Source: Lutibacter sp. A80
GTDB lineage: Bacteria > Bacteroidota > Bacteroidia > Flavobacteriales > Flavobacteriaceae
NCBI RefSeq assembly: GCF_022429645.1
Contig: NZ_CP092480.1
Coordinates: 3,578,501-3,642,500, forward strand
DNA length: 64,000 bases
Reading direction: 5' to 3'
Part shown: positions 45,154 to 61,170 of the stretch, in pieces
Layout of the letters: every line of letters starts with the position of its first letter
Numbering within the stretch: position 1 is the first letter of the stretch
The notes under the pieces: generated by a model
What the model saw: the letters and a program-made list of their open reading frames with translations, nothing else
Databases searched by the model: none
Told to the model about the DNA's origin: nothing
Translations under genes and position numbers: made by a program

Positions 45154-45894
45154 TTAAATATGTTGAATTTTTTCTAAAAAATCTTTCCGTCTGGCTTTAG
45201 CAATAGGTAATTTATCGTTGTTATTTAAAATAACATAACCTTCATTTAAAAAATCGGACACATAATTTAAATTTATAAAATGAGATTTATGGATAGAAAA
45301 AAAGTTGTTTAGTTTAGGTGAATTTGAAAATTTACCAATGCTGTACGAGCTAAGTATAGATGAATTTTTAAGCACAATTTTGGTGTATCCATCAATACCT
45401 TCAAACCTAATAATTTCTGAAGTTTTAATAAAACTTAACCCTTTTTGTGTTGGAATTACAATGGTTGAGTTTCCGTTTGAAATTAGGTTTTCTAATAATT
45501 GTCTATTTTTTTCTAAAGCAGTTTTTTGTTCAATGTTTTTTATAGCATTGTTTATGGCATTTTTTAACTCATCATTATCAATAGGTTTAACTATATAGCC
45601 AATGGCGCAATGTTTTATGGCATCAATAGCGTATTGGTTATAAGCGGTTACAAAAATGATTTCGAAATTTGGATTTTCAATTTTAGAAAGTAAATCTAAT
45701 CCGCTTAATACGGGCATTTCAATATCTAAAAATAACAATTGTGGGTGGTTATTATTAATTTCTTCTAATGCCAATTTTGGGTTTTGAAATTTATGCGTAA
45801 TAGTTACTTGTGGAAAATATTTTTCAACTTTTAATGCTAAACTTTCCAGAGCATTTTTTTCATCATCAACAATTATAGCAGTTGTTTTATTCAT
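45154..45894 (-). CDS. LytTR-family response regulator
   Basis: The 246-residue regulator has a receiver domain with the acidic pocket Asp10-Asp11-Glu12, phospho-acceptor Asp57 (LLFLDIEMPVLSG), Thr83 and Lys103 (GYIVKPID). A C-terminal LytTR DNA-binding domain follows (about residues 140-246; GLSFIKTSEIIRFEGIDGYT). Its start overlaps the end of the sensor-kinase gene by 8 bases, so it is the cognate partner. Targets cannot be read from sequence; the secreted-protein operon just upstream is a plausible candidate. Confidence 0.92.
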   Translation of the reverse strand: MNKTTAIIVDDEKNALESLALKVEKYFPQVTITHKFQNPKLALEEINNNHPQLLFLDIEMPVLSGLDLLSKIENPNFEIIFVTAYNQYAIDAIKHCAIGYIVKPIDNDELKNAINNAIKNIEQKTALEKNRQLLENLISNGNSTIVIPTQKGLSFIKTSEIIRFEGIDGYTKIVLKNSSILSSYSIGKFSNSPKLNNFFSIHKSHFINLNYVSDFLNEGYVILNNNDKLPIAKARRKDFLEKIQHI

Positions 45895-48724
45895 TTTTTT
45901 TAAAAGTTAGTTTTACGCAAGTTCCACCATTATTTTCAATTTCGTAAATATTATAAGTTACAAACCACTCGTGTGATTGGTTTAGTAAATGTATGCGATC
46001 TTTAATAATATCGCTAGATTTAGAAATGTGAGTTTTTATAGATTGGTCTTTAATTTGTTTTGCTTTTTTTAATCCAATACCGTTATCTATAATTTCAACA
46101 GTATATTGATTAATTGCCTGATGTTTAAAATTTATTACAATAGTTCCTTTTCCTTCATTGTGAAATAAACCGTGGTTTACAGAGTTTTCTACAATAGGTT
46201 GTAAAAGCATTGAAGGAATTTTTTGATCGTTTAAATTAAGGCTTTTATCAATATTAAATTTATAATTAAACTCATCTCCAAAGCGCATTTTTTCAATTTC
46301 TAAATAGTTGTTTAATAATGAAATTTCTTGTTCTAGAGAAATAAATTTATCTCGTGAGAAATCGAAGAATTTTCTAATTAATCGTGAAAACCGAACCAAA
46401 TATTTTTCAGATAATTCAATTTCATTTTTAGTAATATAGTATTGAATAGAATTGAGTGAATTAAACACAAAATGAGGGTTCATTTGCGAACGTAAGGCGT
46501 GTAATTCGTATTCAGCTAATTTTTTTTGAGCATTTATTTTATTCGTTTTTTTAGTAAGTTCTCGGTCTCTAATTTTAAATAAAATTAAAATTAAAGTTCC
46601 TAAAATAAGAAAGAAGATTAAAAATTTAGAGATAGTACGTTGATACCACAACGCTGTTATTTGAAAACTATAATTTTCTGAATAGTTGTTGGCTTTTACT
46701 TCTAAAGTGTAATTATTTGGTTCTAAATCAGTAAAATTAATGTTGTTAGAATTAGTAGTAATCCAATTTTTTTGAACTGGATGTAATTTGTATTGATATG
46801 TAAAATCTTTATTGTTTTCATTAAAATTTATACTAGCAATAGAAAACGTTGTATTGTTATCTTTTATGTATTTAAAAGTACGTTTATGGTTGTTTATTTT
46901 GCTACCGTTATAAGCTGCTTTTTCTATGTAAATTTTTAAAAATTGAGAAATGTTTTTTTGGTCTTTTGGCAGAATTACAACGCCATTGTTAGTGCTAATA
47001 AAAATTTTATTTTTATGTATTAATACGTCATTTATATTATTTGAAGGTAAACCGTTATTGGCATTTATAATGGTTTCTAATTTATAGTTAGTGTATCTGT
47101 AAACACCTTCATTAGTAGCTAACCAAAGCTGATTTTTTTCTACAAAAGCATTTTCAACAATTAAAAAATCAGAATTTGGTAAACGATTTATTGTTTTTAA
47201 GTCGGTAATAAAACTTCCAAAGCCATCAGTATTTAATAAAAGGAGTTTTTCTGAAATATTGTTGATAGATAAAATAGATTTTTCAAAGGCTTGATTGGTG
47301 AAATTTATGCTCTTAATGGTGTCGTTTTTAAATTCTTTTAATCCATTATTGGTGGCTATCAATAATCGGTTTTTGAATTTAATAAGGAAATTACAACCCG
47401 ATTGGTAGAATTCTTTTTCAATTTCTAAAGTTGAGGCGTTAATTCTATTTAATCCGAAGGGGAAAAGACCGTATAAATTATTTTTAAAATATACGATATT
47501 ATAGGATAATGGATTGGTAATTAGCCTAGTATTTCTATAGTCAATAGTTTTTAAAACATTATTTTTTAGAGTGCTAATAGTAAATTTTGAAGGGAAAAAA
47601 GAAGTGTTTAACTCTTTAATTTCCGTTGGTTTATAAGGGTAGTCTTCTATTTTTAAAAATTGTTCGAAACTATTTATTTTAGAATTAAATTTATAAAAAC
47701 CTTTATTATAAATATTGGTATAAAGGTCGTTATTTATAATGCTAAATTTACCCGTATTTAGATTATTTAAATATGTTATATTTCTTTTAACATAGGGTAA
47801 TTTATAAATTCCATTAGAAAAAGTAGCGAGCCAAATAGTATTTGTTTTATCTACAATTGCAAAATGGGAGTCTATGTGCTTAGGAAACAAATAAGCATCT
47901 TTTATATGTAGCTCTTTGTCTAAAAAACCTACAAAACCAGTTCCAGAGATTTGAATTTTATTATTAATTATATTTATTCTAGCATGTTTTGCCTTTTCTA
48001 AACCTTTTTCATCTTTAAAGGTTGAAAACCTTAGTTTTAAGGTGTTTAAATTAAGGATTAGATAATCATTTTCAGTAACCCAACAATAAAGAGAATCATT
48101 TAATTGCTTTCTTCTTGCTAATACGTTTATATAAGGTTTATAAGTGAGTTTTTTTATTACTGAATTTTTATGATCAATTATTTTTAGGGTATCTTGAAGT
48201 TTTGTAAGGTTTAAATACTTTACACTAGGATGCTTAATATTTATTCGATCTCTAGACCCTATATTATTCAGAATAATTTCCCATTTATTGTTTTTCAATG
48301 CAAAAGTTTTGGTTGGTCCGGTGGGATATATCTTTTCTCCAATTTGACTAGAAAAAATAGGATTCATAATTTCTCCTTCATTTTTAGTTGGAAAAGAAAA
48401 TACACTATCGTTTTCTATATATCCTAACTCTGTAGTTTTTGTTATGTACCACACTTTAGAATCGGGTGTTGTAAATGCATCCCAAACATCATTTTTTGGA
48501 AGTCCATTTTTAGTTGTAAAGTTTTTAAATTCACTACCGTTATATCTAACCATTCCTTTATCGGTTAAAAACCATAGAAATCCTTTTGTGTCTTGCCGGA
48601 TAGTATAAATGTGATTACTTGGTAAACCATCTTTAATAGAATAATTGGTAAACTGTTGCGCAAAAGAAAAACTCCACATAACTAAAGTGAAAATTATAGT
48701 AATATGGAGTTTAAGATTTTTCAA
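45887..48724 (-). CDS. LytS-type sensor histidine kinase with beta-propeller sensor
   Basis: A 945-residue membrane sensor. A signal peptide (ending FSFAQ) is followed by two-component-regulator propeller repeats (for example FWFLTDKGMVRYNG, LLIATNNGLKEFKN, QLWLATNEGVYRYTN, KIFISTNNGVVI). Next come a Y_Y_Y domain (about 640-715; KNWITTNSNNINFTDLEPNN), one transmembrane helix (about 718-738) and a coiled coil. The kinase domain has the phospho-accepting His751 in QMNPHFVFNSLNSI and the ATP-binding QPIVENSVNHG and IIDNGIGL. Propeller/Y_Y_Y sensors usually monitor extracytoplasmic signals. Here no SusCD genes are nearby, so glycan sensing is not supported. Confidence 0.92.
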   Translation of the reverse strand: MKNLKLHITIIFTLVMWSFSFAQQFTNYSIKDGLPSNHIYTIRQDTKGFLWFLTDKGMVRYNGSEFKNFTTKNGLPKNDVWDAFTTPDSKVWYITKTTELGYIENDSVFSFPTKNEGEIMNPIFSSQIGEKIYPTGPTKTFALKNNKWEIILNNIGSRDRINIKHPSVKYLNLTKLQDTLKIIDHKNSVIKKLTYKPYINVLARRKQLNDSLYCWVTENDYLILNLNTLKLRFSTFKDEKGLEKAKHARINIINNKIQISGTGFVGFLDKELHIKDAYLFPKHIDSHFAIVDKTNTIWLATFSNGIYKLPYVKRNITYLNNLNTGKFSIINNDLYTNIYNKGFYKFNSKINSFEQFLKIEDYPYKPTEIKELNTSFFPSKFTISTLKNNVLKTIDYRNTRLITNPLSYNIVYFKNNLYGLFPFGLNRINASTLEIEKEFYQSGCNFLIKFKNRLLIATNNGLKEFKNDTIKSINFTNQAFEKSILSINNISEKLLLLNTDGFGSFITDLKTINRLPNSDFLIVENAFVEKNQLWLATNEGVYRYTNYKLETIINANNGLPSNNINDVLIHKNKIFISTNNGVVILPKDQKNISQFLKIYIEKAAYNGSKINNHKRTFKYIKDNNTTFSIASINFNENNKDFTYQYKLHPVQKNWITTNSNNINFTDLEPNNYTLEVKANNYSENYSFQITALWYQRTISKFLIFFLILGTLILILFKIRDRELTKKTNKINAQKKLAEYELHALRSQMNPHFVFNSLNSIQYYITKNEIELSEKYLVRFSRLIRKFFDFSRDKFISLEQEISLLNNYLEIEKMRFGDEFNYKFNIDKSLNLNDQKIPSMLLQPIVENSVNHGLFHNEGKGTIVINFKHQAINQYTVEIIDNGIGLKKAKQIKDQSIKTHISKSSDIIKDRIHLLNQSHEWFVTYNIYEIENNGGTCVKLTFKKNE

Positions 48725-48811: not shown

Positions 48812-49495
48812 TTAAATTATTTCATCAATAAGACCATCACAATCGTTGTCAATACCATCTTTTATTTCTTTTGTAAAAGGATGTACTTTAGCATTGTTAT
48901 CATCACAATCTAGGTTGTTGGTTACACCATCATCTGTAGCTGCAAAATTTTGAGATCCGTAACCATCTCCATCTTCATCTATATAGTATTCAACAATATC
49001 AATTTCACCATCGCAATTATCATCTATATCATTTCCTCTAATTTCATCTGCTTTTGGGTTTACACTTGCATTGTTATCATCACAATCACCAGCAAACCAA
49101 GAATAACCATTTGGGGCATTATCGTCAAAATTGTCAACTTCAATAACCACCGGATTATCTGGGTTTCCAAAACCGTCTTCATCTTTATCTACATAAAAAG
49201 TAATTGCTATTTGTCCATTACAATCTTCATCAATTAGGTTGTCAGGTATTTCTGTTGCTCCTGGATATACATCGGCATTTGTGTCATCACAATCAGTGTA
49301 ATTTTCAACATAACCATCTGGGATAGGGTCGCTAACTTGAAATGCAGTTGAATTTGCTGTAGAATCTCCAAAGCTATCATTATCATTGTCTGGATAATAG
49401 TAAGCAAAGCCATCATTACATGCAGGCCCAATTATAAATACAGCTATTAAAAGTAATGTTACGGGAATGCCAATTTTTAAAATTAATTTTTTCAT
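48812..49495 (-). CDS. Secreted or lipid-anchored protein with MopE-type metal-binding repeats
   Basis: The 227-residue protein has an N-terminal hydrophobic signal segment ending GPAC (Cys26), possibly a lipoprotein site though not a perfect lipobox. It then has three copies of an acidic repeat, each with a YxDxDxDGFG-like half and a DCDDxNAxVxPxAxEIxxNxID half (TDCDDTNADVYPGATEI, GDCDDNNASVNPKADEI, LDCDDNNAKVHPFTKEI). These are the putative metal-binding (MopE / thrombospondin-3-like) motifs, expected to bind calcium. It is 3 bases downstream of the Lgt-like gene and is probably translated with it. Confidence 0.85.
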   Translation of the reverse strand: MKKLILKIGIPVTLLLIAVFIIGPACNDGFAYYYPDNDNDSFGDSTANSTAFQVSDPIPDGYVENYTDCDDTNADVYPGATEIPDNLIDEDCNGQIAITFYVDKDEDGFGNPDNPVVIEVDNFDDNAPNGYSWFAGDCDDNNASVNPKADEIRGNDIDDNCDGEIDIVEYYIDEDGDGYGSQNFAATDDGVTNNLDCDDNNAKVHPFTKEIKDGIDNDCDGLIDEII

Positions 49496-49498
49496 TTT

Positions 49499-50296
49499 TT
49501 AGTTATTTAAGTTTATTTTATTTTTAGTTTTTAATTTTATATATAAGACTGACGCAGTAATTAATATGAGTAAAGCAATGAATTGTGAATGCGATAGGAT
49601 GTTCTCAAAAATATAACCTCGATTGTCTCCTCTAAAAAGTTCTAAAATAGCTCTGCTTATTGCGTAGAAAACCAAGTAGAACAAGAAAATTTGTCCGCTA
49701 AATTGTTGGCGTTTTTTTATTATAAGTAAAATAATAATTAAGATAATTAGTGTAATTGCTTCGTATAATTGTGTTGGATGTACCGTTGTATTATGTGTGG
49801 TTGGAAAAACCATTCCAAAACTGTTATTTGTTGGAGCCCCATAACAACAACCGGCATTAAAGCAGCCTATTCTACCAATTGAATGTACAATTAATGTGGT
49901 AATTGCTAGAATATCTAACATAGGTAAAATGCTAATTTTGTGCTTTTTTAAATACCAGATTACAAAGGGAATAATAGTTACAAATGATCCGTAAAATACA
50001 AAACCACCTGAAAAATTATTGAGCATTAAATGTGGGTTATTCAAAAAATACAATGGTTTTTCTAAGTAGTAAAATAATTTTCCGCCAATAAACCCAGCGA
50101 TAAAAATTAGATAGAAAAATGAATTTGGTAAGTTAGCAATATTCATTTCTTTTTTTGCGCGCCATTTAGTGTATAAAGCTGCTACTAGAGTACCTGAAGC
50201 AATACAAAAAGCGTAGGTGTAGATGGTAACTTCTTGTATATTGAGAAAGTTAGATAAAAATTCAGGTAGATGAAAAGTAAATAGCTGCGGGTACAT
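49499..50296 (-). CDS. Prolipoprotein diacylglyceryl transferase (Lgt) family membrane protein, Cys-rich variant
   Basis: The 265-residue membrane protein has about seven transmembrane segments and Lgt-family layout: SGGFVFYGSFVTIIPFVIWY in the middle, HSIGRIGCFNAGCCYG (about residues 117-132), HPTQLYEAI (about 150) and a late FRGDNRG block. Classical Lgt has GRxGNFxN; here this reads GRIGCFNAGCC. The protein therefore belongs to a side branch and may transfer a lipid to other substrates, or be a second Lgt. Its gene pairs with that of the MopE-like protein, whose N-terminal cysteine could be its target (inference). Confidence 0.78.
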   Translation of the reverse strand: MYPQLFTFHLPEFLSNFLNIQEVTIYTYAFCIASGTLVAALYTKWRAKKEMNIANLPNSFFYLIFIAGFIGGKLFYYLEKPLYFLNNPHLMLNNFSGGFVFYGSFVTIIPFVIWYLKKHKISILPMLDILAITTLIVHSIGRIGCFNAGCCYGAPTNNSFGMVFPTTHNTTVHPTQLYEAITLIILIIILLIIKKRQQFSGQIFLFYLVFYAISRAILELFRGDNRGYIFENILSHSQFIALLILITASVLYIKLKTKNKINLNN

Positions 50297-50384
50297 ATAT
50301 GTTTATAAAATTTATATAAACCTACATAAACTTTCTCCTTTTAAAAATAGGGGTTTGATGAACTCTAAGTTTGGTTAGATGAAC

Positions 50385-50423
50385 TAAAAAAAGAAGCTTT
50401 CTGAAAAAAATCAAAAAGCTTCT
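50385..50423 (-). terminator. Intrinsic terminator of the surface-protein operon
   Basis: On the minus strand AGAAGCTTT (50423-50415) pairs with AAAGCTTCT (50400-50392) and is followed by a T-run (to 50385). A second small hairpin (50429-50447) lies between it and the stop codon. Confidence 0.82.
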
Positions 50424-50450
50424 CAATTTCTCTAAAAAAAATAGAGAGGT

Positions 50451-52535
50451 TTAATTAATGCTAACTGTTTCACTAACTTTAGATTTTCCACCGTCTGTAG
50501 TTACTACTTTTATTGCGTAAGCTGGGGATTTACTTGTTAAACGTTCTTTAAAAATTAATTCTCGGGTGTTTTTGTATTGCACCAAGTTTCCATCTTTATT
50601 CTCCTTGTAAATTACATACAAGGTTTCATTATTATGAAATTTGTATTTCCAGCTTAGAGTTATTTCATTTTTATCTTGTGTAACTTTTAAATCTTCAACA
50701 GGCGGACGTACACCTGTATCATAAGGTTTTCCCATTACAGGAACTGCAAAATCAGATTTGTTATCACTATCGTCTATTGCTTGTAATGAATAGTAATAGC
50801 GCGTTCCTTTTTCTACTTTTTTATCAATATATATTTTTTGATCATTTTGAAGTTGAGCTAATTGTTCCCATTCATCTTTAAGATTTAATTTTCTGAAAAG
50901 AATCTGTTGTTTTACATCTCTACTTTTACTTAAAGCAAACTCTAAATTCACAAAATCTTCACCTACTTTTACCCTTTTAAATACAGGAGTGGTTGGCGGA
51001 ATAATATCGGGTCTCTTAACTTTTAATATTTCTGAAAATTCAGAAGTGTTATGGTTAAAATCTAAAGCTTCAGTTCTATAATAAATATACGGAGTTAAAG
51101 ATTTAAGTGTAACAGTGTCTAAAAAAACTGTTTGAACTTCATTTTGGAGACTATCTAACGATAAAAACCCTTCTTTTATAACAGAAAACTCGTGCTCTGG
51201 ACTGTTAGAGCGGTACAAACGATATCCCATTAAATCTGTTTCTTTATTTTTTTGAATATTTACAGTAACTACGCCTAATGAGTCTATTTTTCCATCAATA
51301 AATATTGGTTTTACAGGAGGTACAGAATCTATAAGTGTTACTGAAATTGGAAAAGATGAACTTACGTTATTTGCGGTATCAAGCGCTTGTACTAAATAAT
51401 AATTACTTTGTCCTTTTATAAAGCTTTTGTCTATAAATTTTCTAGCTGAGCTTGGTAGTAATTTATCGTTTATTAACGAAAAATATCCATCGCTTTTATC
51501 GGATCTTGAAATTGCGAAACCTTTAAAATCCGGCTCAATAGGGTTATTCATTTCCCATTCTATATGAACTTCATCTGGTTTAGCATGTTTTGGTTGTTTT
51601 AAAAACGGTTTTTGAGGAGGTGTTAAATCTCTTGGCATTCCGGTAACTTCAGCAAATTTTACGCGTTCTCCAAAAATAGTTTGGGCATAAAATCTATAGG
51701 TGTATTTTTGATAATTCACCAAACTATCTTCACTAAAACCATTGTGTTTTACGCCTTCATAAGTTTTTCCTCTTACGGTATAAATAGGAGCATTATTTAG
51801 TTTTTTAAAAACACCATTTATTTCTCGTTCAACATCTACACCTGATAAATCTGGATGGTCTTCCCAAACAAAGCCTAATTGTGAATCTCCAGTTTTAATA
51901 TATACTTTGTTTTTATATTGATTGTTATTAATTGTTGTTTGAATGCTAACAGGTATGGATTTAATTTCATAAACAGCAGAGTTTTCAACTAGTTTTACAC
52001 GGTAGGTGTATTTTTTTCCAGTTTCAATAGTTTTGTCTATATAAGCTAAACCAAGTCCTTTAGCGGCATTAGCATTTTTTATAGCTGTTAAAATAGAAAC
52101 CATAAATTGAAAATCTTCATCTGCTTTTTGTTGTTTTAAATCTGCAATACCTTTTGAAAAATCAAATTCTCCACCAGTTTTTTCCTGACTTGAAATATAA
52201 AAATCTTGAGATATTTCAATCTGAATTTTTTCATCTTCTGTTTTTGCTTCTTGAAGGGCTTCTAGCCATTCATCTTCAGAAAAAGGAGTTGTTTTTACAA
52301 TTTCAATAAAGTTTTCAGAATTCCCTTCGGCTCTTTCTAGAATAAATCCACCTTGAAGTCCTAAGTCTAAGGTTTTTTTTCTGTCAGGAATAAAGCGTAA
52401 TTCTACACCGTTAGTAGTATAACGTGCGGCGGCTTTAATTTCACTAATTGGGTTTTCTTGTGCATTTATTTTAGTACTTCCAAAAAATAAACTAATGATT
52501 AATATTATATATTTTGTGCTTTTCATAATTTTCAT
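50451..52535 (-). CDS. Secreted fibronectin type III repeat protein
   Basis: The 694-residue secreted protein has a signal peptide ending TKINAQ (about residue 25). An N-terminal region rich in charged helices (residues about 90-150) is followed by at least four fibronectin-III-like modules, each with a TYRVKLV / YTYRFYAQT / SNYYLVQALDTANN / YYYSLQAIDDSDNK strand. No enzymatic motif and no clear type IX sorting domain were seen. It is the third gene of the operon, 2 bases after the stop of the giant-protein gene. The first or the fourth codon (both ATG) may be the start. A structural or adhesive role is likely; function is unknown. Confidence 0.8.
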   Translation of the reverse strand: MKIMKSTKYIILIISLFFGSTKINAQENPISEIKAAARYTTNGVELRFIPDRKKTLDLGLQGGFILERAEGNSENFIEIVKTTPFSEDEWLEALQEAKTEDEKIQIEISQDFYISSQEKTGGEFDFSKGIADLKQQKADEDFQFMVSILTAIKNANAAKGLGLAYIDKTIETGKKYTYRVKLVENSAVYEIKSIPVSIQTTINNNQYKNKVYIKTGDSQLGFVWEDHPDLSGVDVEREINGVFKKLNNAPIYTVRGKTYEGVKHNGFSEDSLVNYQKYTYRFYAQTIFGERVKFAEVTGMPRDLTPPQKPFLKQPKHAKPDEVHIEWEMNNPIEPDFKGFAISRSDKSDGYFSLINDKLLPSSARKFIDKSFIKGQSNYYLVQALDTANNVSSSFPISVTLIDSVPPVKPIFIDGKIDSLGVVTVNIQKNKETDLMGYRLYRSNSPEHEFSVIKEGFLSLDSLQNEVQTVFLDTVTLKSLTPYIYYRTEALDFNHNTSEFSEILKVKRPDIIPPTTPVFKRVKVGEDFVNLEFALSKSRDVKQQILFRKLNLKDEWEQLAQLQNDQKIYIDKKVEKGTRYYYSLQAIDDSDNKSDFAVPVMGKPYDTGVRPPVEDLKVTQDKNEITLSWKYKFHNNETLYVIYKENKDGNLVQYKNTRELIFKERLTSKSPAYAIKVVTTDGGKSKVSETVSIN

Positions 52536-52537
52536 TT

Positions 52538-55500
52538 TTAATGAGTCATTATTGCTCCTGCGCTTCCACTTACAAGTACTGGAGCGCCCGTTCTAAAGTT
52601 TTTTACAATTGTTTGGTTTACGGGTGAACCGTTATTTTTAACAGCATTTACCCAAATTGAACCATTCCATTCTTTTAAGGTTGCAGTTACTGTAAATCTA
52701 TAGCTTTTATTTTCAGTAAGCGAATTAATTACAGGGGCTGGCTCAGGTGGTAAATCATCATAGTCATCAGAAGGTCCTGGAGCAGGGTACATCATTAAAC
52801 CACTAGGTGCTACCATTGCACCTACAGCAGGTGTTGCTGCTGGTGTAAATCCGGCAGGTGCTGTATATGCCATACCAACTGGTGCTGCAGCTGCAACGGT
52901 TAATCCGCCTGCACCGCCACTTGGTGGCATTGGGGCAAATGTTGCTGGAGCAGCAGTAATTGAAATTGGTGTGGCTATTGTATATAAAAATTCACCTAAG
53001 TTATTTTCATCAGTTGTTAAACTTACTCCAGTCCAAGTACCGGTATCATCATCTTTAACTTGTAAAATTTTAGTAACCTCCATTTTAAATGTACGCATTT
53101 CTACAGTTCCATTTGATTGTTGCTCTGATACGTCAAAAACTTCATCTGGATTTAAACCATATTTTACTGCAAGAGGTTGATCAGTAGGAAAGTTAAAACT
53201 GCTGTTTGGGTGTACATATTGTATTAATGCGTTTTCTTGATCAGCAGCTGCATCACCTTGTGTTACTGCAGCACCACTACTAGCTCCACCATTACCACAC
53301 TGAGTTCCTTTTTCGAAACTTTTGTGGAAATTAAATGAAATTAAATCAAAAACTGTAATTGAGCCATCAATAGCACCTGCTACATAATATGGATTTGGGA
53401 ATTCGCCAGTAATCCAAGCACCTGCTGCTAAACTGGCAATGGTTTTATTCCATTTAAGATCACCTCCAATTTTATACTTTTTAACACCAGCTGCTGCCAT
53501 ACCATACATGCCTAAGCTTCCTTTTGCACGCCAACCGTTAATTCCAATAGGAGTGTTACCGTCGCAGCTTCCTAAATATTGCATATATGATAGATGTAAT
53601 TCTGCGCCTGCAGCTAAGTTAAAACTTAGTACGTGTTTTTTATTTCCATTATAATAATCAGTTAATTCTTTTTCACCGCTTTTATCAAACATAAAACCAA
53701 TACCTAAAGCAAATCCTTTTCCACTAGCTGTGTTGCTTCCAATACCTCCTGTTGAGGCGCCTCCTGCACTAGGGTAAGCACCAACAGCATTGTGATAATT
53801 TGTTCTAAAAGTGTTTGTAAATCCACCTGGATATGGAATATCATTTCCGAACATTAAATATTCGTATAAACTTATTCCAAATACATTTACAGTATTTAAA
53901 TTAGCCGGTTCACCAAATTTAAAATACCAATCGTTTGTTTTACCATTAATATCCAATACCAAACTCATAGGGCTAGGTGTTGAAATAGGTGATGCATTTA
54001 CATTTACGTTTGCACTTAAATTAAAGTGTTTTTGAGGGAAATCGTAATCAACAGTAACCGAACCATCTATTTTAGCTTTATTCCTTGTAGCAAAACTTGC
54101 TCCTACATAAAAATCTCCAGTAAAACCAATATACGTCATACCTCCGCTACCAGAAAATGTTCCAAGTAAGCCAACATCGGCATTAAAAGTTTCTTCTTTT
54201 GGTGTGGTTGCTAATACTGCTTTTGCTCTAAAACCTAATGAAGAATACTTTGGAGTAAACGTGTAGGTAGATCCAGATAAGGTAGCTTCCATATTTTTAA
54301 ATGCGCCTCCACCAAAACCACGGAAAGCCATTCCAGGTAAAAATGTGATTCCTGGGGCAGGGAATGTAGCTTCTGCTTCTACTCTCCAGTATCTATACCT
54401 TGATGAATGTAAGTATGTAGTGTTTCCAAATTCAGCAAGGGCGCCAACTTTAATTCCAGGCCCTTTAAATTCGGCACTTAAAGTACCAATAAATCCGTCA
54501 CCAAAAACAGGGTCGTCATTTCTAAATCCAATGGCTCCATTTATTTTTACTGCAGCCATGTCAGCACTAATAGCAATAGAATCAATAATACCGCCAATAA
54601 ATTCAGGTTCAAATTTCTTTCCTCCACTGCCAGATTCATCATTTATGGCAACTTCTGCTCCTAATGTTGTCATTCCTCCAATTTTGTCTGAAAGATTGAA
54701 AATAACATCAAAGTTTAGTTTTCCATGTAGTAGTTGATTTCCCGAAGTAGTCATTTCATTGTATTCAATCTCTTCAATTGTTACTGGGAAATTTGCCATT
54801 TTCTTTTGTGGGCTTGCAAACGACCAGTTACCAGAATCAAAGGCTAATTTGTTACTTGCTAAACTTGAATCGTAATCAAAACCTACGCCTTCAAAACCAA
54901 TTTCGATATTAATTTGATTTACAGGTCCTATTTCTGCATCTTCCCAAGTAAAATCACCATTTAGTTCCATAGTGAATGTTTTTTTGTCTTTATCAAAATA
55001 ACCAGAAAGGTTAGAGGTTTCATCTAAATTCATTGTCCCTTTCAATAAATCGGCATTTATTGGCTGATCAGGTGTTAATGTAATTTGAAAGTTTTTATTT
55101 TCTGCAGGATTTAAAGGTACATTAAAAAGTGCAGTATAAGCTAGAGAATCGTCTAGACTATTTCCTTCACTAACAGGAATGGCAATGCGTCCTTCAACAC
55201 CAGCTTCAACAAAGCTACTAGATAAAATTTCTAAGTAAATACGATCAATACTTGCAGCCATATCTCCAACTTCTGCGTTACCAAAAACAACTAAGTTTTC
55301 AATTTCAGACTCTAAGGTAATTCCTGTATCATCAATAATCATATCATTAATACTAATTTCAATAGGATCTCCTCCAGGGGTGTTCATTTTATTTGGAGAG
55401 AATTTTAAGGTTAATTCTTCCATATGAAAACCTCTAAATAGGTTGGTAGTTTCACCAGTATATATTGTAGGAAATTCAATTGCAGGAGCATTTGCTAAAT

Positions 55501-58500
55501 CTGACCAATCATATGAAATATTATCGGCTAAGATTATAAAATCGTGTGCGCCAGAATCTGTGGGAACTCCAGAATTTGGATCTGGAATTGTACTTGAAAT
55601 AACGGACTCTTCTAAATTTCCAATTAGTATTAAATCACCCCAAGCACTACCAGTAGCTATTAAATTGGCTTTTGCTTTTGAGGTTCCATCATCAGGTAGC
55701 GGTATTAACCATTCACGTGTAAAGTTAGCATCTAATTCTACTCCATAGTTTGAGAATCCGAATTCATCCCATTCAATATAACATCCAGGATTGTCTATTG
55801 TTGGAGCTTTAAATGTAAAGGTTATTTTTTCGTTGATATTTCCAATAGTGATGTCTTCTAAAAGTTCCATTCTTTCAGGTGGAAACTCAGGAGAATCTGG
55901 ATGAAATTCAATATTTAAAGCTTTAAATCCTATTAATTGGATATCTCCCCAATCTGGTGGAGTTGTTTTTGCAGCCACTAGGTTAAATTCAGATTTGTCT
56001 GCTCTAAACACCATTTCTGTAATTGCTAATTGGTCTCCACTTGGAAAATTTAATCCTAGAGGAACTTTAACGGGCATAATTGCACCTGTGGCAGGATCAT
56101 AATCTATTTCTTGTGCAGTGTTTGCATCAATCCAATCCATAATATCTTCTGCATGTTGGTGGTTAAATGTAAGTCCGCCACCCATACCAATTAACCAGGC
56201 TACAGGGTAGGTAGGGGCAGTATCATGTATTTGAGCTGTTATAAAGCCAGTAACAAGATTATTGTCATTATCAATAGTGATGTCTGTAAATTCAACGGTC
56301 ATATCAGATTTTATCCAATCTATATACACTGTTCCGGTTCCTGAATAAGGACCAGGAGCAGCACCTTCTAAAGTGGTAGTAATAATTTCAAATTCTCCTT
56401 GACCATTTACGTGTTCGCCAGCAAAGATACTTTCGCCTAATGTAAGATCTCCTTCACCAATACCAATGTTTAGAGCTAATAATTCTGGAGAAACAGGGAT
56501 GCATTTAACAGTAACACAACTTACTTCTTCATCACCTTCTTCTGGAAATAATGGGGCAATTGTAAAAGTTGCACAAATTTCTGTTGGAATTTCATTTTCA
56601 ATAGTATATTCGTGAATAAACGGGCCGCTATTTACTATAGATTCTTCAGAGAAATCACCTCCCCAGTCTAAAGTAACAACCATACTGTGTGTTTCTAAGC
56701 TGTAATTTTCATTGCAATTTAATAAGTAATCACGGTAAGCAATTACACCTGCTAAGGTTAAATTTCTTGGGTTGTCTTCTGGTTCTGTTTGAAAAATATT
56801 TAGTTCTGGCTCAATTACTTCTTCATCTGTACAAGCGCAATCACCATCATTATCGCCATCATTGTCACCATCGGCAATACCATCTGTATCTTCGTTATCT
56901 TCATTATCGTTATCAGTTACGTCATTTCCGTTATTATTGTCTGTTTCATCGACTAATATTTCAATATCATCAAAACTGTCAATCAACCATTGTGGTAATT
57001 CTTTACAGACAGTGTTTATACAAACAACTTCTGTTGTTTTAGCATTTATAAGTTCTAAGGTAATACAAACTTCAGTTGGATTGCCTAATATTTCGGCTAT
57101 AGTATGGTTTCCATAATCATGGTCGATTTCTGTATCCGTACCATCGTATTGATTAACAGAGTGAATACAGCCCCAATCTACACTTATAAATAAAGTAAAT
57201 TGCGTTGGATCTATTCCGTCTAAAAGTTGTGACATATATGTCATACTCATAACATTAAAACCAGCTATTTGAATTAGACTCGGTTTTTCTTCTGATTGAG
57301 GTAAAAAAGTTAAAATATTTTTAAGAGCCTCTTCATCAAAATTTTCACAGTTTTGAGTTAGTTCATGATATTCTGACGGCCAGTTGGCTTTTAAATGTTC
57401 TTGTATATCACTTGGATAAGGGATACATACAGTTTTTTCACAAATAATATCTTTGGAATCGTTGCTTCTTATTATTAATCTAAGACAGATTTCAGAAGGG
57501 ATTTCATTATTTCCCATTAAATAAACATTGCTATAATTAAATGATTCTCCAAACCTGCTAACTTCATCTGTAGTTGTTTCGTAACCCCAATCTATTTCTA
57601 TGTAAGAAGTATAATTTTCAGGGTCTGTAATGCCTATATGTGCCATATAATTTTCTGCCATAGTATCAATATTGTAGATATCTACTGAGGCGTCTTCGTT
57701 AGATCCTGTTCTAAAAACTAACGGAGAGATAAAATCGTTGTCTGACATATTACAGCTTATATCATTATCTCGGTCGTTTTCTTGGTTTTCAGCTTTCTCT
57801 TTAAAACTTAGTAAGACTTCAGTTTTACAAGATTGGCCTGTAGTTAGGGAGCGTAACTCCATTTTAACGGTTACTCCAGTTGAAGGAGTAGTGCTATTGT
57901 CTCCAAAATTATTATAATTATGAGTTTTATTAGGTGTGTTATATGGTGTAACATCCATAGTATGTGTACAACCCCAATCGATATAAGTAGTTAGTTGGTA
58001 TTCTGCTGGGTTAATAGTGCCGGCAACAAGAAGCCAAAAATTATTTTGGACTGCAGAAATACCGTGTAAATCTACAATGTCGCTATTACCAGTATCTACA
58101 AAAAATAGATACTTTTTTAAGTCGAGAGGATTAATTGCACAATTAAATACATCTGAAGATTTTGTGGTAGGAGTACCATTATTTTCAGAGCCATCATTTA
58201 AACCTTTAACATTAAAAGTTCCTATTTTAACAAAGCTGTTATTTCCAGATTTGTATGGGTTATCGTTATAAGTTACTGGTTTTATACTCCATACATATTG
58301 AGTGTCTTCATCAGGAGCAACAATATCGGTAGGCCAGTTAAATTGTGTGCCGGCCATAATTTCTTCTTCAACCAATGGGTAGTTTACATCAAAAGCTGCT
58401 GTGGCTGATTGCTTGTTTTTAACTTCACTAATTGCAATAATATATTTTATGCCTTCATCTCCAGGTGGAGTAGGTGCAATAGGAGACCAAGTAAAAATGG

Positions 58501-59035
58501 TTGAAGCTAAATTTTGTGCTAGAATTGTTGTATTTTCAATAGGGTAAATTAGTTCAGGTAATAGATAGTCTGTAATTATCATTGGTTTACAGAAACTTTC
58601 TTGCTTTGTTAGTATATTTCCTTTTAAATCTACTAATGAAACACAAAATGAATACATTCCTGCGGGTAATAATCCAGTTTGAATGATTGTTTTTTCTATA
58701 GATCCGTAAAAAGTTAATGCATTATATGGTACTATTTCATCAGCTAAAAAAGTTTCAGAGCCAAAAGGTAAATACATAATTGGCATTTGACTGGTTTTTG
58801 TTTCAGCAACCAATTCGTTGTCTTTATAAATTTTAGTTTGAATTTTGTATTCGTAATCTTCATACTTTTCGTTTGTATTTACAATGGTTAACAATGCTAG
58901 TTCGGCTCTGTCTACCCATTCAGATATTTGAGGATTTGGGTTAGAGTCAACATTTAAGCTAACATTAATTTCTTGTGCATTTAATTTTATAAAAACACTT
59001 AAAATGAATACGAATATTATATGTAATTTTTTCAT
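52538..59035 (-). CDS. Giant secreted surface protein, TANFOR-like ends with PKD-like repeats
   Basis: A 2165-residue protein starting at ATG 59035, which gives a clean signal peptide ending KLNAQ (residue 21). An upstream in-frame ATG would overlap the previous gene. Order of parts: an N-terminal region (about 22-280; LPAGMYSFCVSLVD, STIFTWSPIAP) resembling TANFOR-domain proteins as I recall them; four PKD-like repeats marked by DWG (about residues 353, 482, 620, 792); an acidic Asp/Asn linker (about 695-742) with CAC; a long beta-rich region (about 850-1900); a WYFKFGEPANLNTVNVFG block near 1730; an Ala/Pro/Met-rich stretch (about 2025-2082); and a final VTATLKEWNGSIWVNAV domain. No catalytic motif was seen. 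It is likely exposed at the cell surface; function is unknown. Confidence 0.8.
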   Translation of the reverse strand: MKKLHIIFVFILSVFIKLNAQEINVSLNVDSNPNPQISEWVDRAELALLTIVNTNEKYEDYEYKIQTKIYKDNELVAETKTSQMPIMYLPFGSETFLADEIVPYNALTFYGSIEKTIIQTGLLPAGMYSFCVSLVDLKGNILTKQESFCKPMIITDYLLPELIYPIENTTILAQNLASTIFTWSPIAPTPPGDEGIKYIIAISEVKNKQSATAAFDVNYPLVEEEIMAGTQFNWPTDIVAPDEDTQYVWSIKPVTYNDNPYKSGNNSFVKIGTFNVKGLNDGSENNGTPTTKSSDVFNCAINPLDLKKYLFFVDTGNSDIVDLHGISAVQNNFWLLVAGTINPAEYQLTTYIDWGCTHTMDVTPYNTPNKTHNYNNFGDNSTTPSTGVTVKMELRSLTTGQSCKTEVLLSFKEKAENQENDRDNDISCNMSDNDFISPLVFRTGSNEDASVDIYNIDTMAENYMAHIGITDPENYTSYIEIDWGYETTTDEVSRFGESFNYSNVYLMGNNEIPSEICLRLIIRSNDSKDIICEKTVCIPYPSDIQEHLKANWPSEYHELTQNCENFDEEALKNILTFLPQSEEKPSLIQIAGFNVMSMTYMSQLLDGIDPTQFTLFISVDWGCIHSVNQYDGTDTEIDHDYGNHTIAEILGNPTEVCITLELINAKTTEVVCINTVCKELPQWLIDSFDDIEILVDETDNNNGNDVTDNDNEDNEDTDGIADGDNDGDNDGDCACTDEEVIEPELNIFQTEPEDNPRNLTLAGVIAYRDYLLNCNENYSLETHSMVVTLDWGGDFSEESIVNSGPFIHEYTIENEIPTEICATFTIAPLFPEEGDEEVSCVTVKCIPVSPELLALNIGIGEGDLTLGESIFAGEHVNGQGEFEIITTTLEGAAPGPYSGTGTVYIDWIKSDMTVEFTDITIDNDNNLVTGFITAQIHDTAPTYPVAWLIGMGGGLTFNHQHAEDIMDWIDANTAQEIDYDPATGAIMPVKVPLGLNFPSGDQLAITEMVFRADKSEFNLVAAKTTPPDWGDIQLIGFKALNIEFHPDSPEFPPERMELLEDITIGNINEKITFTFKAPTIDNPGCYIEWDEFGFSNYGVELDANFTREWLIPLPDDGTSKAKANLIATGSAWGDLILIGNLEESVISSTIPDPNSGVPTDSGAHDFIILADNISYDWSDLANAPAIEFPTIYTGETTNLFRGFHMEELTLKFSPNKMNTPGGDPIEISINDMIIDDTGITLESEIENLVVFGNAEVGDMAASIDRIYLEILSSSFVEAGVEGRIAIPVSEGNSLDDSLAYTALFNVPLNPAENKNFQITLTPDQPINADLLKGTMNLDETSNLSGYFDKDKKTFTMELNGDFTWEDAEIGPVNQINIEIGFEGVGFDYDSSLASNKLAFDSGNWSFASPQKKMANFPVTIEEIEYNEMTTSGNQLLHGKLNFDVIFNLSDKIGGMTTLGAEVAINDESGSGGKKFEPEFIGGIIDSIAISADMAAVKINGAIGFRNDDPVFGDGFIGTLSAEFKGPGIKVGALAEFGNTTYLHSSRYRYWRVEAEATFPAPGITFLPGMAFRGFGGGAFKNMEATLSGSTYTFTPKYSSLGFRAKAVLATTPKEETFNADVGLLGTFSGSGGMTYIGFTGDFYVGASFATRNKAKIDGSVTVDYDFPQKHFNLSANVNVNASPISTPSPMSLVLDINGKTNDWYFKFGEPANLNTVNVFGISLYEYLMFGNDIPYPGGFTNTFRTNYHNAVGAYPSAGGASTGGIGSNTASGKGFALGIGFMFDKSGEKELTDYYNGNKKHVLSFNLAAGAELHLSYMQYLGSCDGNTPIGINGWRAKGSLGMYGMAAAGVKKYKIGGDLKWNKTIASLAAGAWITGEFPNPYYVAGAIDGSITVFDLISFNFHKSFEKGTQCGNGGASSGAAVTQGDAAADQENALIQYVHPNSSFNFPTDQPLAVKYGLNPDEVFDVSEQQSNGTVEMRTFKMEVTKILQVKDDDTGTWTGVSLTTDENNLGEFLYTIATPISITAAPATFAPMPPSGGAGGLTVAAAAPVGMAYTAPAGFTPAATPAVGAMVAPSGLMMYPAPGPSDDYDDLPPEPAPVINSLTENKSYRFTVTATLKEWNGSIWVNAVKNNGSPVNQTIVKNFRTGAPVLVSGSAGAIMTH

Positions 59036-59045
59036 AATGTTAGTT

Positions 59046-60743
59046 TTAGAAATTTTGTAATAATGCAAATTGCATTCTATGTTCGTTTGTTATTGCATTT
59101 GGTTTTGAAGAACCGTATTTGTAGTTATTTAAGTTATATGATAAATTAAATAGTAACTTTTTTGTTATTTTATATTTTGCTTTCACACGCATACTAAATC
59201 TATGGTCTGTTGTAAAGTTATCTCTAGTAATATTGGCTAAATTAAAACCTAAAGAAGGGCTTAATTTTTTATCGAAAAATTTGTAGCTAAAGGTTGTTCC
59301 GTAATTGCTCATTTTTATGGTACTCGAAGGCATTTCATTATTAAAAAACAAGCTGATAAAATTTATATTTAAAGGCATTTCTTTAAACATTAGATTGTAA
59401 TTTAAACTTACAGTTTTAGATTTGGTAGCTACAAAAGCACTACTTACAGCGTCATATTGGTCAAAAAGGTTTAAACTACCGTTTACATTTACCTGGTGGT
59501 TGATTGTTTTAGTTTTAAAATTATATGAAGGAGAAAGTGAGAAAGAGTTGTTAATCATTTCAACTCGTATTAAATTATTTATTTCGTTATTGTTAAACCC
59601 AAAATTTGAATAATTTGCATTTATAGCAAAAGCATCACTTATTTGTGAAAACACATTAACATTACTAATTATACGTTTGGTGCTTTGTAGATTGGTGTTT
59701 TTAACATTATTAGTTCTTATACCAAACATTCCATTTATAGATGTTTTATCTTTAAATAATTTAAAACTAGATCTTAATTTATAATCTAAAATATCTTTTT
59801 CAACATTTCTATACCCAACAGGTACAAAGCCAGGACCAATATATTTTACTTCACCACCAATAGTAAATTTTTTAGACGTCCAATCTATTGATGAAACATG
59901 TGAAATGTCAGCCTTACTCGATGCGTTAATTGTTATAAAATCACTTAAAGATTCAATTGTAGCATCGTTTATTGTAAAAGTGTTGTTTAAATTGCTTGTA
60001 AAAATAGAAGCGGCTGTTTCTGTTTTGAAAAGTAATTTTTCTGAAATGTTAAATTCAATTAATGGAGAAATTGAAATTCCTTCAATTGGGTCATCATATA
60101 AAGGCGCATTGGTTACTGAGTTTATATCATCTTTAACTTTTACAAAATTTAAGGTAACTTTTGGTCCATCAATTTTACCATAACCAATTCTTGTGGCTAA
60201 TATTTTTTGCTTGTAAGCACCAACAATATTAAACATTGCGTCTGACTCTATTGCTCTTTGAGATAGACCATAGCTAGTAGAAAAAATAAGTTTACCAGGA
60301 TTTATATCTATTCCAATACCAAAAAGGGGAGTGTCTCCAGTTGTTAATAATGAATAATTTGGAGTTTGTGAACCTAAATAACCTTTTAACCACTTATATT
60401 CTGGGTTTATGCTAATATCATTTTTAGGATTTTGTATAAAATCGATTAGGTTTTCCTCAGGAAGTGATGGTAGGTTGTAGAGTGTTTTTTGATTGCTAAT
60501 ACTAAGTCCAAATGGAATTGATAAATATTCTCCAATTTGTATTGTGGCATTAGCATTTAACCGTAATTCGTTTTCTGGATATTTTGGTCTAAAGGTTGGG
60601 TAATTTTCTTCGGAATAATTATAAGTATCAAAAAAAAGACCAACATTTCCACTAAAAGTAATTTTTTGTTCTTTTTGTTGAGCAAACATAAAACTACCTG
60701 TGAAAATAAAAGTTAGGCATAAAAAATAATTTATTGATTTCAT
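59046..60743 (-). CDS. Putative outer-membrane beta-barrel protein
   Basis: The 565-residue protein has a signal peptide ending GSFMFAQ (about residue 22). The mature part is made of short alternating amphipathic strands throughout (for example KITFSGNVGLFFDTY, LLFKTETAASIFTS, TTFSYKFFDKKLSPSLGF) and ends in a C-terminal Phe (FALLQNF), as outer-membrane proteins do. It lacks TonB-box or plug motifs and does not look like SusC. It is the first gene of the operon, 10 bases before the giant-protein gene, and may anchor or export that protein (inference). Family not recognised. Confidence 0.7.
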   Translation of the reverse strand: MKSINYFLCLTFIFTGSFMFAQQKEQKITFSGNVGLFFDTYNYSEENYPTFRPKYPENELRLNANATIQIGEYLSIPFGLSISNQKTLYNLPSLPEENLIDFIQNPKNDISINPEYKWLKGYLGSQTPNYSLLTTGDTPLFGIGIDINPGKLIFSTSYGLSQRAIESDAMFNIVGAYKQKILATRIGYGKIDGPKVTLNFVKVKDDINSVTNAPLYDDPIEGISISPLIEFNISEKLLFKTETAASIFTSNLNNTFTINDATIESLSDFITINASSKADISHVSSIDWTSKKFTIGGEVKYIGPGFVPVGYRNVEKDILDYKLRSSFKLFKDKTSINGMFGIRTNNVKNTNLQSTKRIISNVNVFSQISDAFAINANYSNFGFNNNEINNLIRVEMINNSFSLSPSYNFKTKTINHQVNVNGSLNLFDQYDAVSSAFVATKSKTVSLNYNLMFKEMPLNINFISLFFNNEMPSSTIKMSNYGTTFSYKFFDKKLSPSLGFNLANITRDNFTTDHRFSMRVKAKYKITKKLLFNLSYNLNNYKYGSSKPNAITNEHRMQFALLQNF

Positions 60744-61130: not shown

Positions 61131-61170
61131 ATGAGGTGGTTTAAAAAGTTAACTTTTTAAACCACCTCAT
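61131..61170 (-). terminator. 40-base perfect palindrome, terminator of the tail-specific protease gene
   Basis: Two 20-base arms without loop (61131-61150 / 61151-61170), beginning ATGAGGTGGTTTAAAAAG. On the minus strand it is followed by TTTTTATTATT, 23 bases after the ctp stop; on the plus strand by GCTTTTTTAG, so it could work both ways. Confidence 0.85.

What the first reader, a model, noticed from the sequence alone, without database searches (positions are those of the whole stretch)
48812..60743. Candidate undescribed surface system: barrel + 2165-residue secreted protein + FN3 protein, beside Lgt-like and MopE-like genes
Seen: three tightly packed minus-strand genes (gaps of 10 and 2 bases) encode a putative outer-membrane barrel, a giant secreted protein and a fibronectin-III protein, all with signal peptides. 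After one terminator come an Lgt-family gene and a calcium-repeat protein gene 3 bases apart, then a LytS/LytTR pair. Known: FN3, PKD and MopE repeats are typical of surface and adhesive proteins. Inferred: the barrel may hold or export the giant protein, the FN3 protein may be a partner, and the LytTR pair may control them. I know of no assigned function for this set.
Basis: partly seen in the sequence, partly recalled or inferred. Interest (0 to 1): 0.75.

Follow-up and report, generated by a model that had tools for sequence, protein, structure and literature searches.

The report
TANFOR giant, barrel and FN3 operon
Three neighbouring genes, conserved across a large group of bacteria, seem to build a cell-surface apparatus whose docking domain is shared with a known family of bacterial toxins, and they point to a candidate outer-membrane partner for that domain.

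Summary
Three packed minus-strand genes encode a predicted outer-membrane barrel (F2, 565 aa), a 2165-aa giant (F0) and a fibronectin-III protein (F1, 694 aa). They form a conserved operon: in 47 loci with enough flank, F1 accompanies the giant's core in 47 and F2 in 42; the median gap is 11 bp. The core occurs in 46 of 395 phylum genomes.

The giant's N-terminus is a TANFOR-type domain, known as the head of Bacteroidetes polymorphic toxins whose export is unsolved (PMC7073777). Here it is also found on toxin-like proteins, standing alone, and fused to F2 barrels. F2 (E<1e-40) occurs in 57 of 59 genomes with a strong TANFOR match and 0 of 46 without one (thresholds set afterwards). All 125 TANFOR genomes carry the T9SS gene sprA, but 0 of 46 F0 C-termini carry a T9SS signal.

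Best reading: F2 is the dedicated outer-membrane anchor or shuttle of TANFOR proteins; in this probable Lutibacter the cargo is a toxin-less surface giant. Lgt and MopE are not part of the module. A LytS/LytTR pair sometimes is.

The parts
59046..60743 (-). F2: predicted outer-membrane beta-barrel, 565 aa, with signal-like N-terminus
   Evidence: AlphaFold model pLDDT 89.5, pTM 0.76, 26 strand elements; PDB fold hits are membrane barrels; last residue Phe nearly invariant in 52 sequences
52538..59035 (-). F0: giant secreted protein, 2165 aa (236 kDa, pI 4.2)
58136..59035 (-). TANFOR-type head of F0 (residues 1-300, signal included)
   Evidence: profile without the window, E 1.2e-102; profile-profile comparison with toxin heads
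56456..58135 (-). acidic spacer of F0 (residues 301-860) with DWG motifs at residues 353, 482, 620 and 790, possibly PKD-like repeats
   Evidence: poorly conserved in distant relatives
53156..56434 (-). conserved all-beta core of F0 (residues 868-1960)
   Evidence: alignments A3, A4; model pLDDT 83.2, pTM 0.49
52541..53155 (-). C-terminal region of F0 (residues 1961-2165), no T9SS sorting domain recognised
50451..52535 (-). F1: FN3-type partner, 694 aa
50391..50424 (-). terminator-like hairpin after F1
45887..48724 (-). LytS-type sensor kinase, 945 aa (likely regulator, with the next gene)
   Evidence: orthologues within three ORFs of the module in 19 of 89 loci
45154..45894 (-). LytTR response regulator, 246 aa
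49499..50296 (-). second Lgt gene of the genome; neighbour, not part of the conserved module
48812..49495 (-). MopE-repeat protein; neighbour, not part of the conserved module

Best explanation
The three genes are one surface-display operon. The proteins cross the inner membrane by Sec (inferred from N-termini). F2 folds in the outer membrane as a large barrel (predicted). The TANFOR head of the giant is the part that F2 recognises and holds (inferred from fusions and co-occurrence). Behind the head, an acidic spacer and a long all-beta core form an elongated body (predicted beta; shape not known), with F1 as its constant partner (inferred). The T9SS, found in every TANFOR genome sampled, is the likeliest engine that carries the giant across the outer membrane, and F2 does for it what PorP/SprF barrels do for type B CTD proteins, but with an N-terminal handle in place of a C-terminal one (inferred). 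In this genome the cargo has no recognisable toxin tip and no immunity gene follows it, so its job is probably structural or adhesive. In relatives the same kind of head sits on polymorphic toxin-like proteins. The LytS/LytTR pair probably controls the operon (inferred).
For: Conserved operon: F1 in 47 and F2 in 42 of 47 loci with room; 123 of 142 intergenic gaps at most 100 bp. The head is found in four settings: on the F0 core, alone, on toxin-like proteins, and on F2 barrels (control against F1 1.9%). F2 at E<1e-40 in 40 of 40 and 17 of 19 genomes with a TANFOR match of E<1e-29, and in 0 of 15 and 0 of 31 TANFOR-negative genomes. Of 76 listed TANFOR places 61 have F2 within 20 kb, the nearest always on the same strand; in the second set 15 of 19 genomes have F2 within 5 kb on the same strand. 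sprA in 125 of 125 TANFOR genomes against 179 of 270 others. Cognate barrel-cargo pairs are established for type B CTD proteins (PMC12618676, abstract and Discussion; PMC9143113, abstract).
Against: No experiment and no complex model. F0 lacks a T9SS sorting domain in 46 of 46 C-termini scanned. F2 belongs to no PorP/SprF family (0 of 52). TANFOR matches of E 1e-10 to 1e-29 lack a strong F2 (0 of 12), and G404 and G292 break the rule. G304 and G342 have F2 away from their listed TANFOR genes, save a weaker F2 piece beside one in G342. F0 cores without TANFOR exist (L099, L116, L151), and L139 has F2 without a detected TANFOR. The sprA link may reflect phylogeny. The core's overall shape is uncertain (pTM 0.49).
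Confidence: 0.55

Rival explanations
1. F2 is itself the exporter: a T9SS-independent outer-membrane translocon that takes TANFOR proteins by their N-terminal head, as FhaC-type barrels do with their partners.
For: Large predicted barrel whose fold hits include usher and SprA translocation pores besides MtrB and porins; TANFOR fused to the barrel itself in five loci; no CTD on F0.
Against: sprA is present in all 46 core genomes and all 125 TANFOR genomes; no POTRA or usher family is matched by 52 F2 sequences.
Confidence: 0.2
2. The three proteins stay in the envelope and serve outer-membrane biogenesis or lipid movement, the all-beta core acting as a groove beside the barrel.
For: Core strands are two-faced to a similar degree as F2's (z 4.6 and 4.8 against shuffles); top fold hits of the core are LptD, then ApoB100.
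Against: Those LptD fold hits have TM-scores of at most 0.22; the patchy distribution (46 of 395 genomes) and the sharing of the head with toxin-like proteins do not suit housekeeping.
Confidence: 0.1
3. The window giant is itself a polymorphic toxin with an unrecognised C-terminal toxin domain.
For: TANFOR head; toxin-like relatives have conserved heads and unrelated tips: L041 and L042 are 88% identical over about 1040 residues and show no similarity beyond.
Against: The giant is 93% identical to its relative in G019 over the whole length, without a swapped tip; only 2 bp separate F0 and F1, leaving no room for an immunity gene; no toxin family is matched.
Confidence: 0.05

Closest known systems
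TANFOR-containing polymorphic toxins of Bacteroidetes (PMC7073777; NCBI model TIGR02542)
   Same: Homologous N-terminal head, Sec-type N-terminus, genomes with T9SS, FN3-type and SprB-repeat neighbours in some relatives
   Different: No variable toxin tip and no immunity gene in the window; TIGR02542 itself does not reach the window copy. The words barrel and porin do not occur in that paper's main text; its supplements were not seen.
Type B CTD adhesins with cognate PorP/SprF shuttle barrels (PMC12618676, PMC9143113)
   Same: A large surface cargo paired by gene order with its own outer-membrane barrel in T9SS genomes
   Different: The shared handle is N-terminal; no CTD on F0; F2 is a larger barrel outside the PorP/SprF family
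Two-partner secretion (T5bSS)
   Same: Large secreted protein and barrel encoded side by side, with an N-terminal handle
   Different: No POTRA, ShlB or haemagglutination-domain family matched; constant FN3 partner and T9SS association
TAM / Lpt envelope machines
   Same: A large beta-rich protein with an outer-membrane barrel
   Different: No family match; TM-scores to LptD at most 0.22; head shared with toxin-like proteins

Membership tests
TANFOR polymorphic toxin class | N-terminal TANFOR domain | tested here: met
   Own profile without the window E 1.2e-102; window-type heads against toxin heads 98.0%, E 2e-13. The curated model TIGR02542 matches 8 of 37 heads but not the window's.
TANFOR polymorphic toxin class | Variable C-terminal toxin domain | tested here: not met
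   No toxin family; C-terminus conserved, 93% identity to G019 over the full length
TANFOR polymorphic toxin class | Immunity gene directly downstream | tested here: not met
   F1 follows after 2 bp
T9SS substrate (type A or B) | C-terminal sorting domain | tested here: not met
   0 of 46 F0 C-termini in NCBIfam and Pfam; 0 of 13 F1 in Pfam; positive control: SprB-type neighbours match PF18962
T9SS substrate (type A or B) | Host genome has the T9SS translocon | tested here: met
   sprA model TIGR04189 matches the window's genome and all 46 core genomes
T9SS substrate (type A or B) | Export lost in a T9SS mutant | not testable with these tools
   needs an experiment
PorP/SprF shuttle barrels | Match to the PorP/SprF family | tested here: not met
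   0 of 52 F2 members at E 0.01; best families are generic barrels: Porin_4 and OMP_b-brl in 8 each
Two-partner secretion (T5bSS) | POTRA-bearing FhaC-type transporter | tested here: not met
   No POTRA or ShlB family among the six families matched by 52 F2 members
Outer-membrane beta-barrel | Closed antiparallel barrel with C-terminal aromatic residue | tested here: met
   Prediction only; fold hits; terminal Phe

The most novel reading that the evidence does not exclude
F2 is the founding barrel of an undescribed outer-membrane export route of the Bacteroidota and their sister lines that works without T9SS, reads an N-terminal TANFOR head as its signal, and carries both toxin-less surface giants and polymorphic toxins.
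Probability: 0.18. Interest if true: 0.88.

Novelty: new variant of a known kind. Interest (0 to 1): 0.62.

Why it matters
TANFOR toxins were described in 2020 with T9SS export as a hypothesis only. A barrel that, in the genomes sampled, occurs where a strong TANFOR occurs, mostly lies beside it and is sometimes fused to it, makes the open question of how TANFOR proteins reach the surface testable by deleting one gene. It also places a very large unannotated protein core, found in 32 of 171 sampled genera, in a surface apparatus, and suggests that toxin delivery in this group shares its parts with a non-toxic display system.

Tried and rejected
Single-sequence scan of genome contigs with the giant confirmed no relative; the core alignment then gave 288, of which 80 were kept. 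SprB repeats were not found in the window's genome, but no control genome rang either, so nothing follows. Counting Lgt and MopE into the system was dropped. F0 as a CTD substrate was dropped, and F2 as PorP/SprF. Fold comparison of the core gave LptD and ApoB100 at low TM-scores and porins at target-normalised TM of about 0.3; not used for function. PDB sequence search: nothing for the core, nothing convincing for F2 or TANFOR. BLAST self-comparison of the spacer found no repeat. F1 is a poor marker on its own: 204 of 395 genomes match, many weakly and in ORFs of other lengths, which I read as cross-matches of ordinary FN3 domains. In one search two of the 16 F1 genomes match only weakly, and G061 has F1 without an F0 match; G060 has a weak barrel match without F0.

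Rows dropped before counts: L079, L080, L081 and L085 (same contigs as loci); also loci with under 4 kb before or under 4.5 kb after F0. Three of the 46 core genomes match only at E 1e-5 to 1e-3. The 40 TANFOR genomes were picked for listed TANFOR and F1 matches; the 31 were all genomes with TANFOR E<1e-10, no core match and not yet searched. The limits F2 E<1e-40 and TANFOR E<1e-29 were set after seeing results; at E 0.001, 10 of the 31 controls match F2 (best 8e-28, mostly ORFs of about 800-920 aa). Profiles F0, F1 and F2 contain the window and near relatives as seeds. One search lists were cut by the tool, so places are lower bounds.

Full report
What is there. On the minus strand lie F2 (59046-60743), F0 (52538-59035) and F1 (50451-52535), with gaps of 10 and 2 bases, then a terminator-like hairpin, Lgt, a MopE-repeat protein and a LytS/LytTR pair. 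F0 matches no Pfam or NCBIfam family at E up to 1. The genome is one contig of 3.93 Mb with two Lgt genes and sprA. The genus is inferred to be Lutibacter: contigs of the same-genus genomes G030 (17,271 bases), G001 (200,073) and G017 (74,340) have the lengths of records titled Lutibacter, and that of G027 (89,046) of one titled Flavobacteria bacterium.

The set is conserved. Among 100 relatives, the own genome included, F0 matches in 13, F1 in 16 (two weak) and F2 in 13 (one weak). In the neighbourhoods of the 12 other F0 genomes F0 and F1 are together in 12 of 12. A core alignment of F0 matches 46 of 395 phylum genomes and 32 of 171 genera, three of the genomes weakly, and 288 stretches of named genomes, 80 kept, from Flavobacteriia, Bacteroidales, Chitinophagaceae, Saprospiraceae, Balneolales, Ignavibacteria, Kapabacteria and Chlorobiota. 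Over 89 loci (four duplicates removed; many cut by contig ends) the order is F2-F0-F1 in 33, F0-F1-F2 in 15 and something else or incomplete in 41. Of 142 gaps between module genes the median is 11 bp and 123 are at most 100 bp. In the 47 loci with enough sequence on both sides F1 is present in 47, F2 in 42 and a TANFOR domain in 43; for two of the five loci without F2 (L042, L043) a barrel lies at or past the edge of the stretch. A kinase and LytTR regulator like the window's are within three ORFs in 19 of 89 loci; in the window they are the third and fourth genes after F1. Lgt and MopE do not travel with the module.

The head is of TANFOR type. A profile from the first 300 residues of 63 other F0 proteins matches the window with E 1.2e-102. 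It also matches proteins that were not in the seed: toxin-like proteins in L040, L041, L042, L043 and L149 (E 2e-32 to 8e-41), stand-alone genes of 282-412 aa, and the N-termini of F2 barrels of 711-953 aa in L102, L103, L104, L106 and L107. Profile-profile comparison agrees: toxin heads 98.0% (E 2e-13), stand-alone genes 100%, barrel heads 97.6% (E 5e-12), against a control with F1 of 1.9%. NCBI's model TIGR02542 matches 8 of 37 such heads at E 0.01, best 1.1e-10, but not the window's.

What is known of TANFOR. PMC7073777 (text parts 1-3 of 6 read, and passages; supplements not seen) reports that TANFOR proteins carry polymorphic C-terminal toxins, that SprB, Fn3 and CTD domains are enriched nearby, that more than 95% of TANFOR genomes have T9SS, and it hypothesises T9SS export. 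The words barrel, porin and LytTR do not occur in its main text. Loci here fit: L041 and L042 carry TANFOR proteins 88% identical over about 1040 residues and then without similarity, while the F0 proteins next to them are 90% identical end to end. Three such proteins show an HExxH motif, and a small neighbouring ORF in L040 has an ADP-ribosyltransferase match below the cut-off. In L040-L043 and L149 the F0 core has no TANFOR domain; the toxin-like protein has it instead.

F2 follows TANFOR. In a first set, 40 of 40 TANFOR genomes have F2 at E<1e-40 and 0 of 15 TANFOR-negative genomes of the same family have any match; the 40 were picked for listed TANFOR and F1 matches. In a second set, chosen without regard to F1 and without F0 cores, F2 at E<1e-40 is in 17 of 19 genomes with TANFOR at E<1e-29, in 0 of 12 with weaker TANFOR, and in 0 of 31 TANFOR-negative genomes with sprA, 10 of which have weaker matches down to 8e-28. 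Pooled this is 57 of 59 against 0 of 46, with limits set after the fact and no correction for phylogeny. Of 76 listed TANFOR places in the first set, 61 have F2 and 54 have F1 within 20 kb, the nearest always on the same strand; 7 have neither. In the second set 15 of 19 genomes have F2 within 5 kb on the same strand. Many of these TANFOR ORFs are 3500 to 6400 aa long in genomes without the F0 core, so F2 tracks the head more than the core. F2 and TANFOR are both missing in L099, L116 and L151. In L099 and L116 the core is preceded by about 280 residues that read like a small outer-membrane barrel; Pfam supports this only weakly, in L097 and L116 (OMP_b-brl, E 2e-4 and 1e-3, below cut-off), and not in L096 or L099.

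Structure. F2 is predicted as a large barrel (pLDDT 89.5, pTM 0.76, 26 strand elements). Its nearest solved folds are chain B of the Mtr complex (TM 0.52), then S-layer barrels, pilus ushers, porins and the T9SS translocon. The F0 core is predicted all-beta (pLDDT 83.2) with uncertain overall shape (pTM 0.49) and no convincing fold match: LptD at TM-scores of at most 0.22, OmpU and OmpF1 at about 0.3 by target length. Strands of the core and of F2 are two-faced to a similar degree (z 4.6 and 4.8). Lipobox-like N-termini are rare: 2 of 85 F0, 3 of 86 F1, 3 of 63 F2.

T9SS. sprA (TIGR04189) is in 304 of 395 genomes: all 46 core genomes, all 125 TANFOR genomes, and 179 of the 270 without TANFOR (Fisher 4e-18, uncorrected for phylogeny). 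Yet 0 of 46 F0 C-termini carry a T9SS sorting domain, while SprB-type neighbours do. For type B CTD proteins, PMC12618676 (abstract and Discussion read) shows that cargo needs its cognate PorP/SprF shuttle, and PMC9143113 (abstract read) finds PorP and SprF bound to their cargo. By analogy I favour F2 as a shuttle or anchor for an N-terminal head with T9SS as engine, over F2 as an independent exporter. This step is inference.

Novelty. Literature searches cover open-licence PMC papers only. 'TANFOR domain' since 2019 returned PMC7073777 alone. Its enriched Fn3 neighbours may include F1, and its supplements may list other genes of the set. The TANFOR class is known. The link to a dedicated barrel, the conserved giant core, the toxin-less version and the barrel fusions I did not find in print in those searches. 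I file it as a new variant of a known kind.

Noticed in passing
window 48812-50296: A second Lgt gene (the genome has two) sits 3 bases from a MopE-repeat gene whose product begins like a weak lipoprotein signal; the pair is seen beside the module only in the window and L033.
   Followed up: partly
window 61131-61170: Perfect 18-bp inverted repeat, terminator-like on both strands, between the barrel gene and the 702-aa gene upstream.
   Followed up: no
L102, L103, L104, L106, L107: TANFOR-type head fused to the N-terminus of F2 barrels of 711-953 aa; L102 has two such barrels in tandem.
   Followed up: yes
L099:8466-13277, L116:9035-13849: Giant core without TANFOR and without F2 nearby; the first 280 residues read like a small outer-membrane barrel, with weak Pfam support in L116 and in the similar L097 only.
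   Followed up: partly
one search places G111:C7:116562, G228:C91:36406, G132:C39:354511: TANFOR heads on ORFs of about 6,400 aa; what the rest of these proteins is was not examined.
   Followed up: no
L034:15445-18954: A 1169-aa ORF right after the module, with a signal-like N-terminus and two HU-type DNA-binding matches (E 1.6e-26) among repeats; odd for a protein that looks exported.
   Followed up: no
L121:7262-15000: In this Nonlabens ulvanivorans record the giant is split into four ORFs and F1 into two, from frameshifts or assembly errors; left as it is.
   Followed up: no
L035-L038, genes after F2: In other Lutibacter genomes a stand-alone TANFOR gene is followed by a 506-aa protein; the L036 copy has an OmpA domain (E 1.7e-21), which could tie the apparatus to the cell wall.
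   Followed up: no
L040, L041, L042, L044, L149, L151, L155: A large gene of the SprB-type cluster (c6) follows F1; SprB repeats and a T9SS sorting domain were confirmed in L041, L044 and L151.
   Followed up: partly
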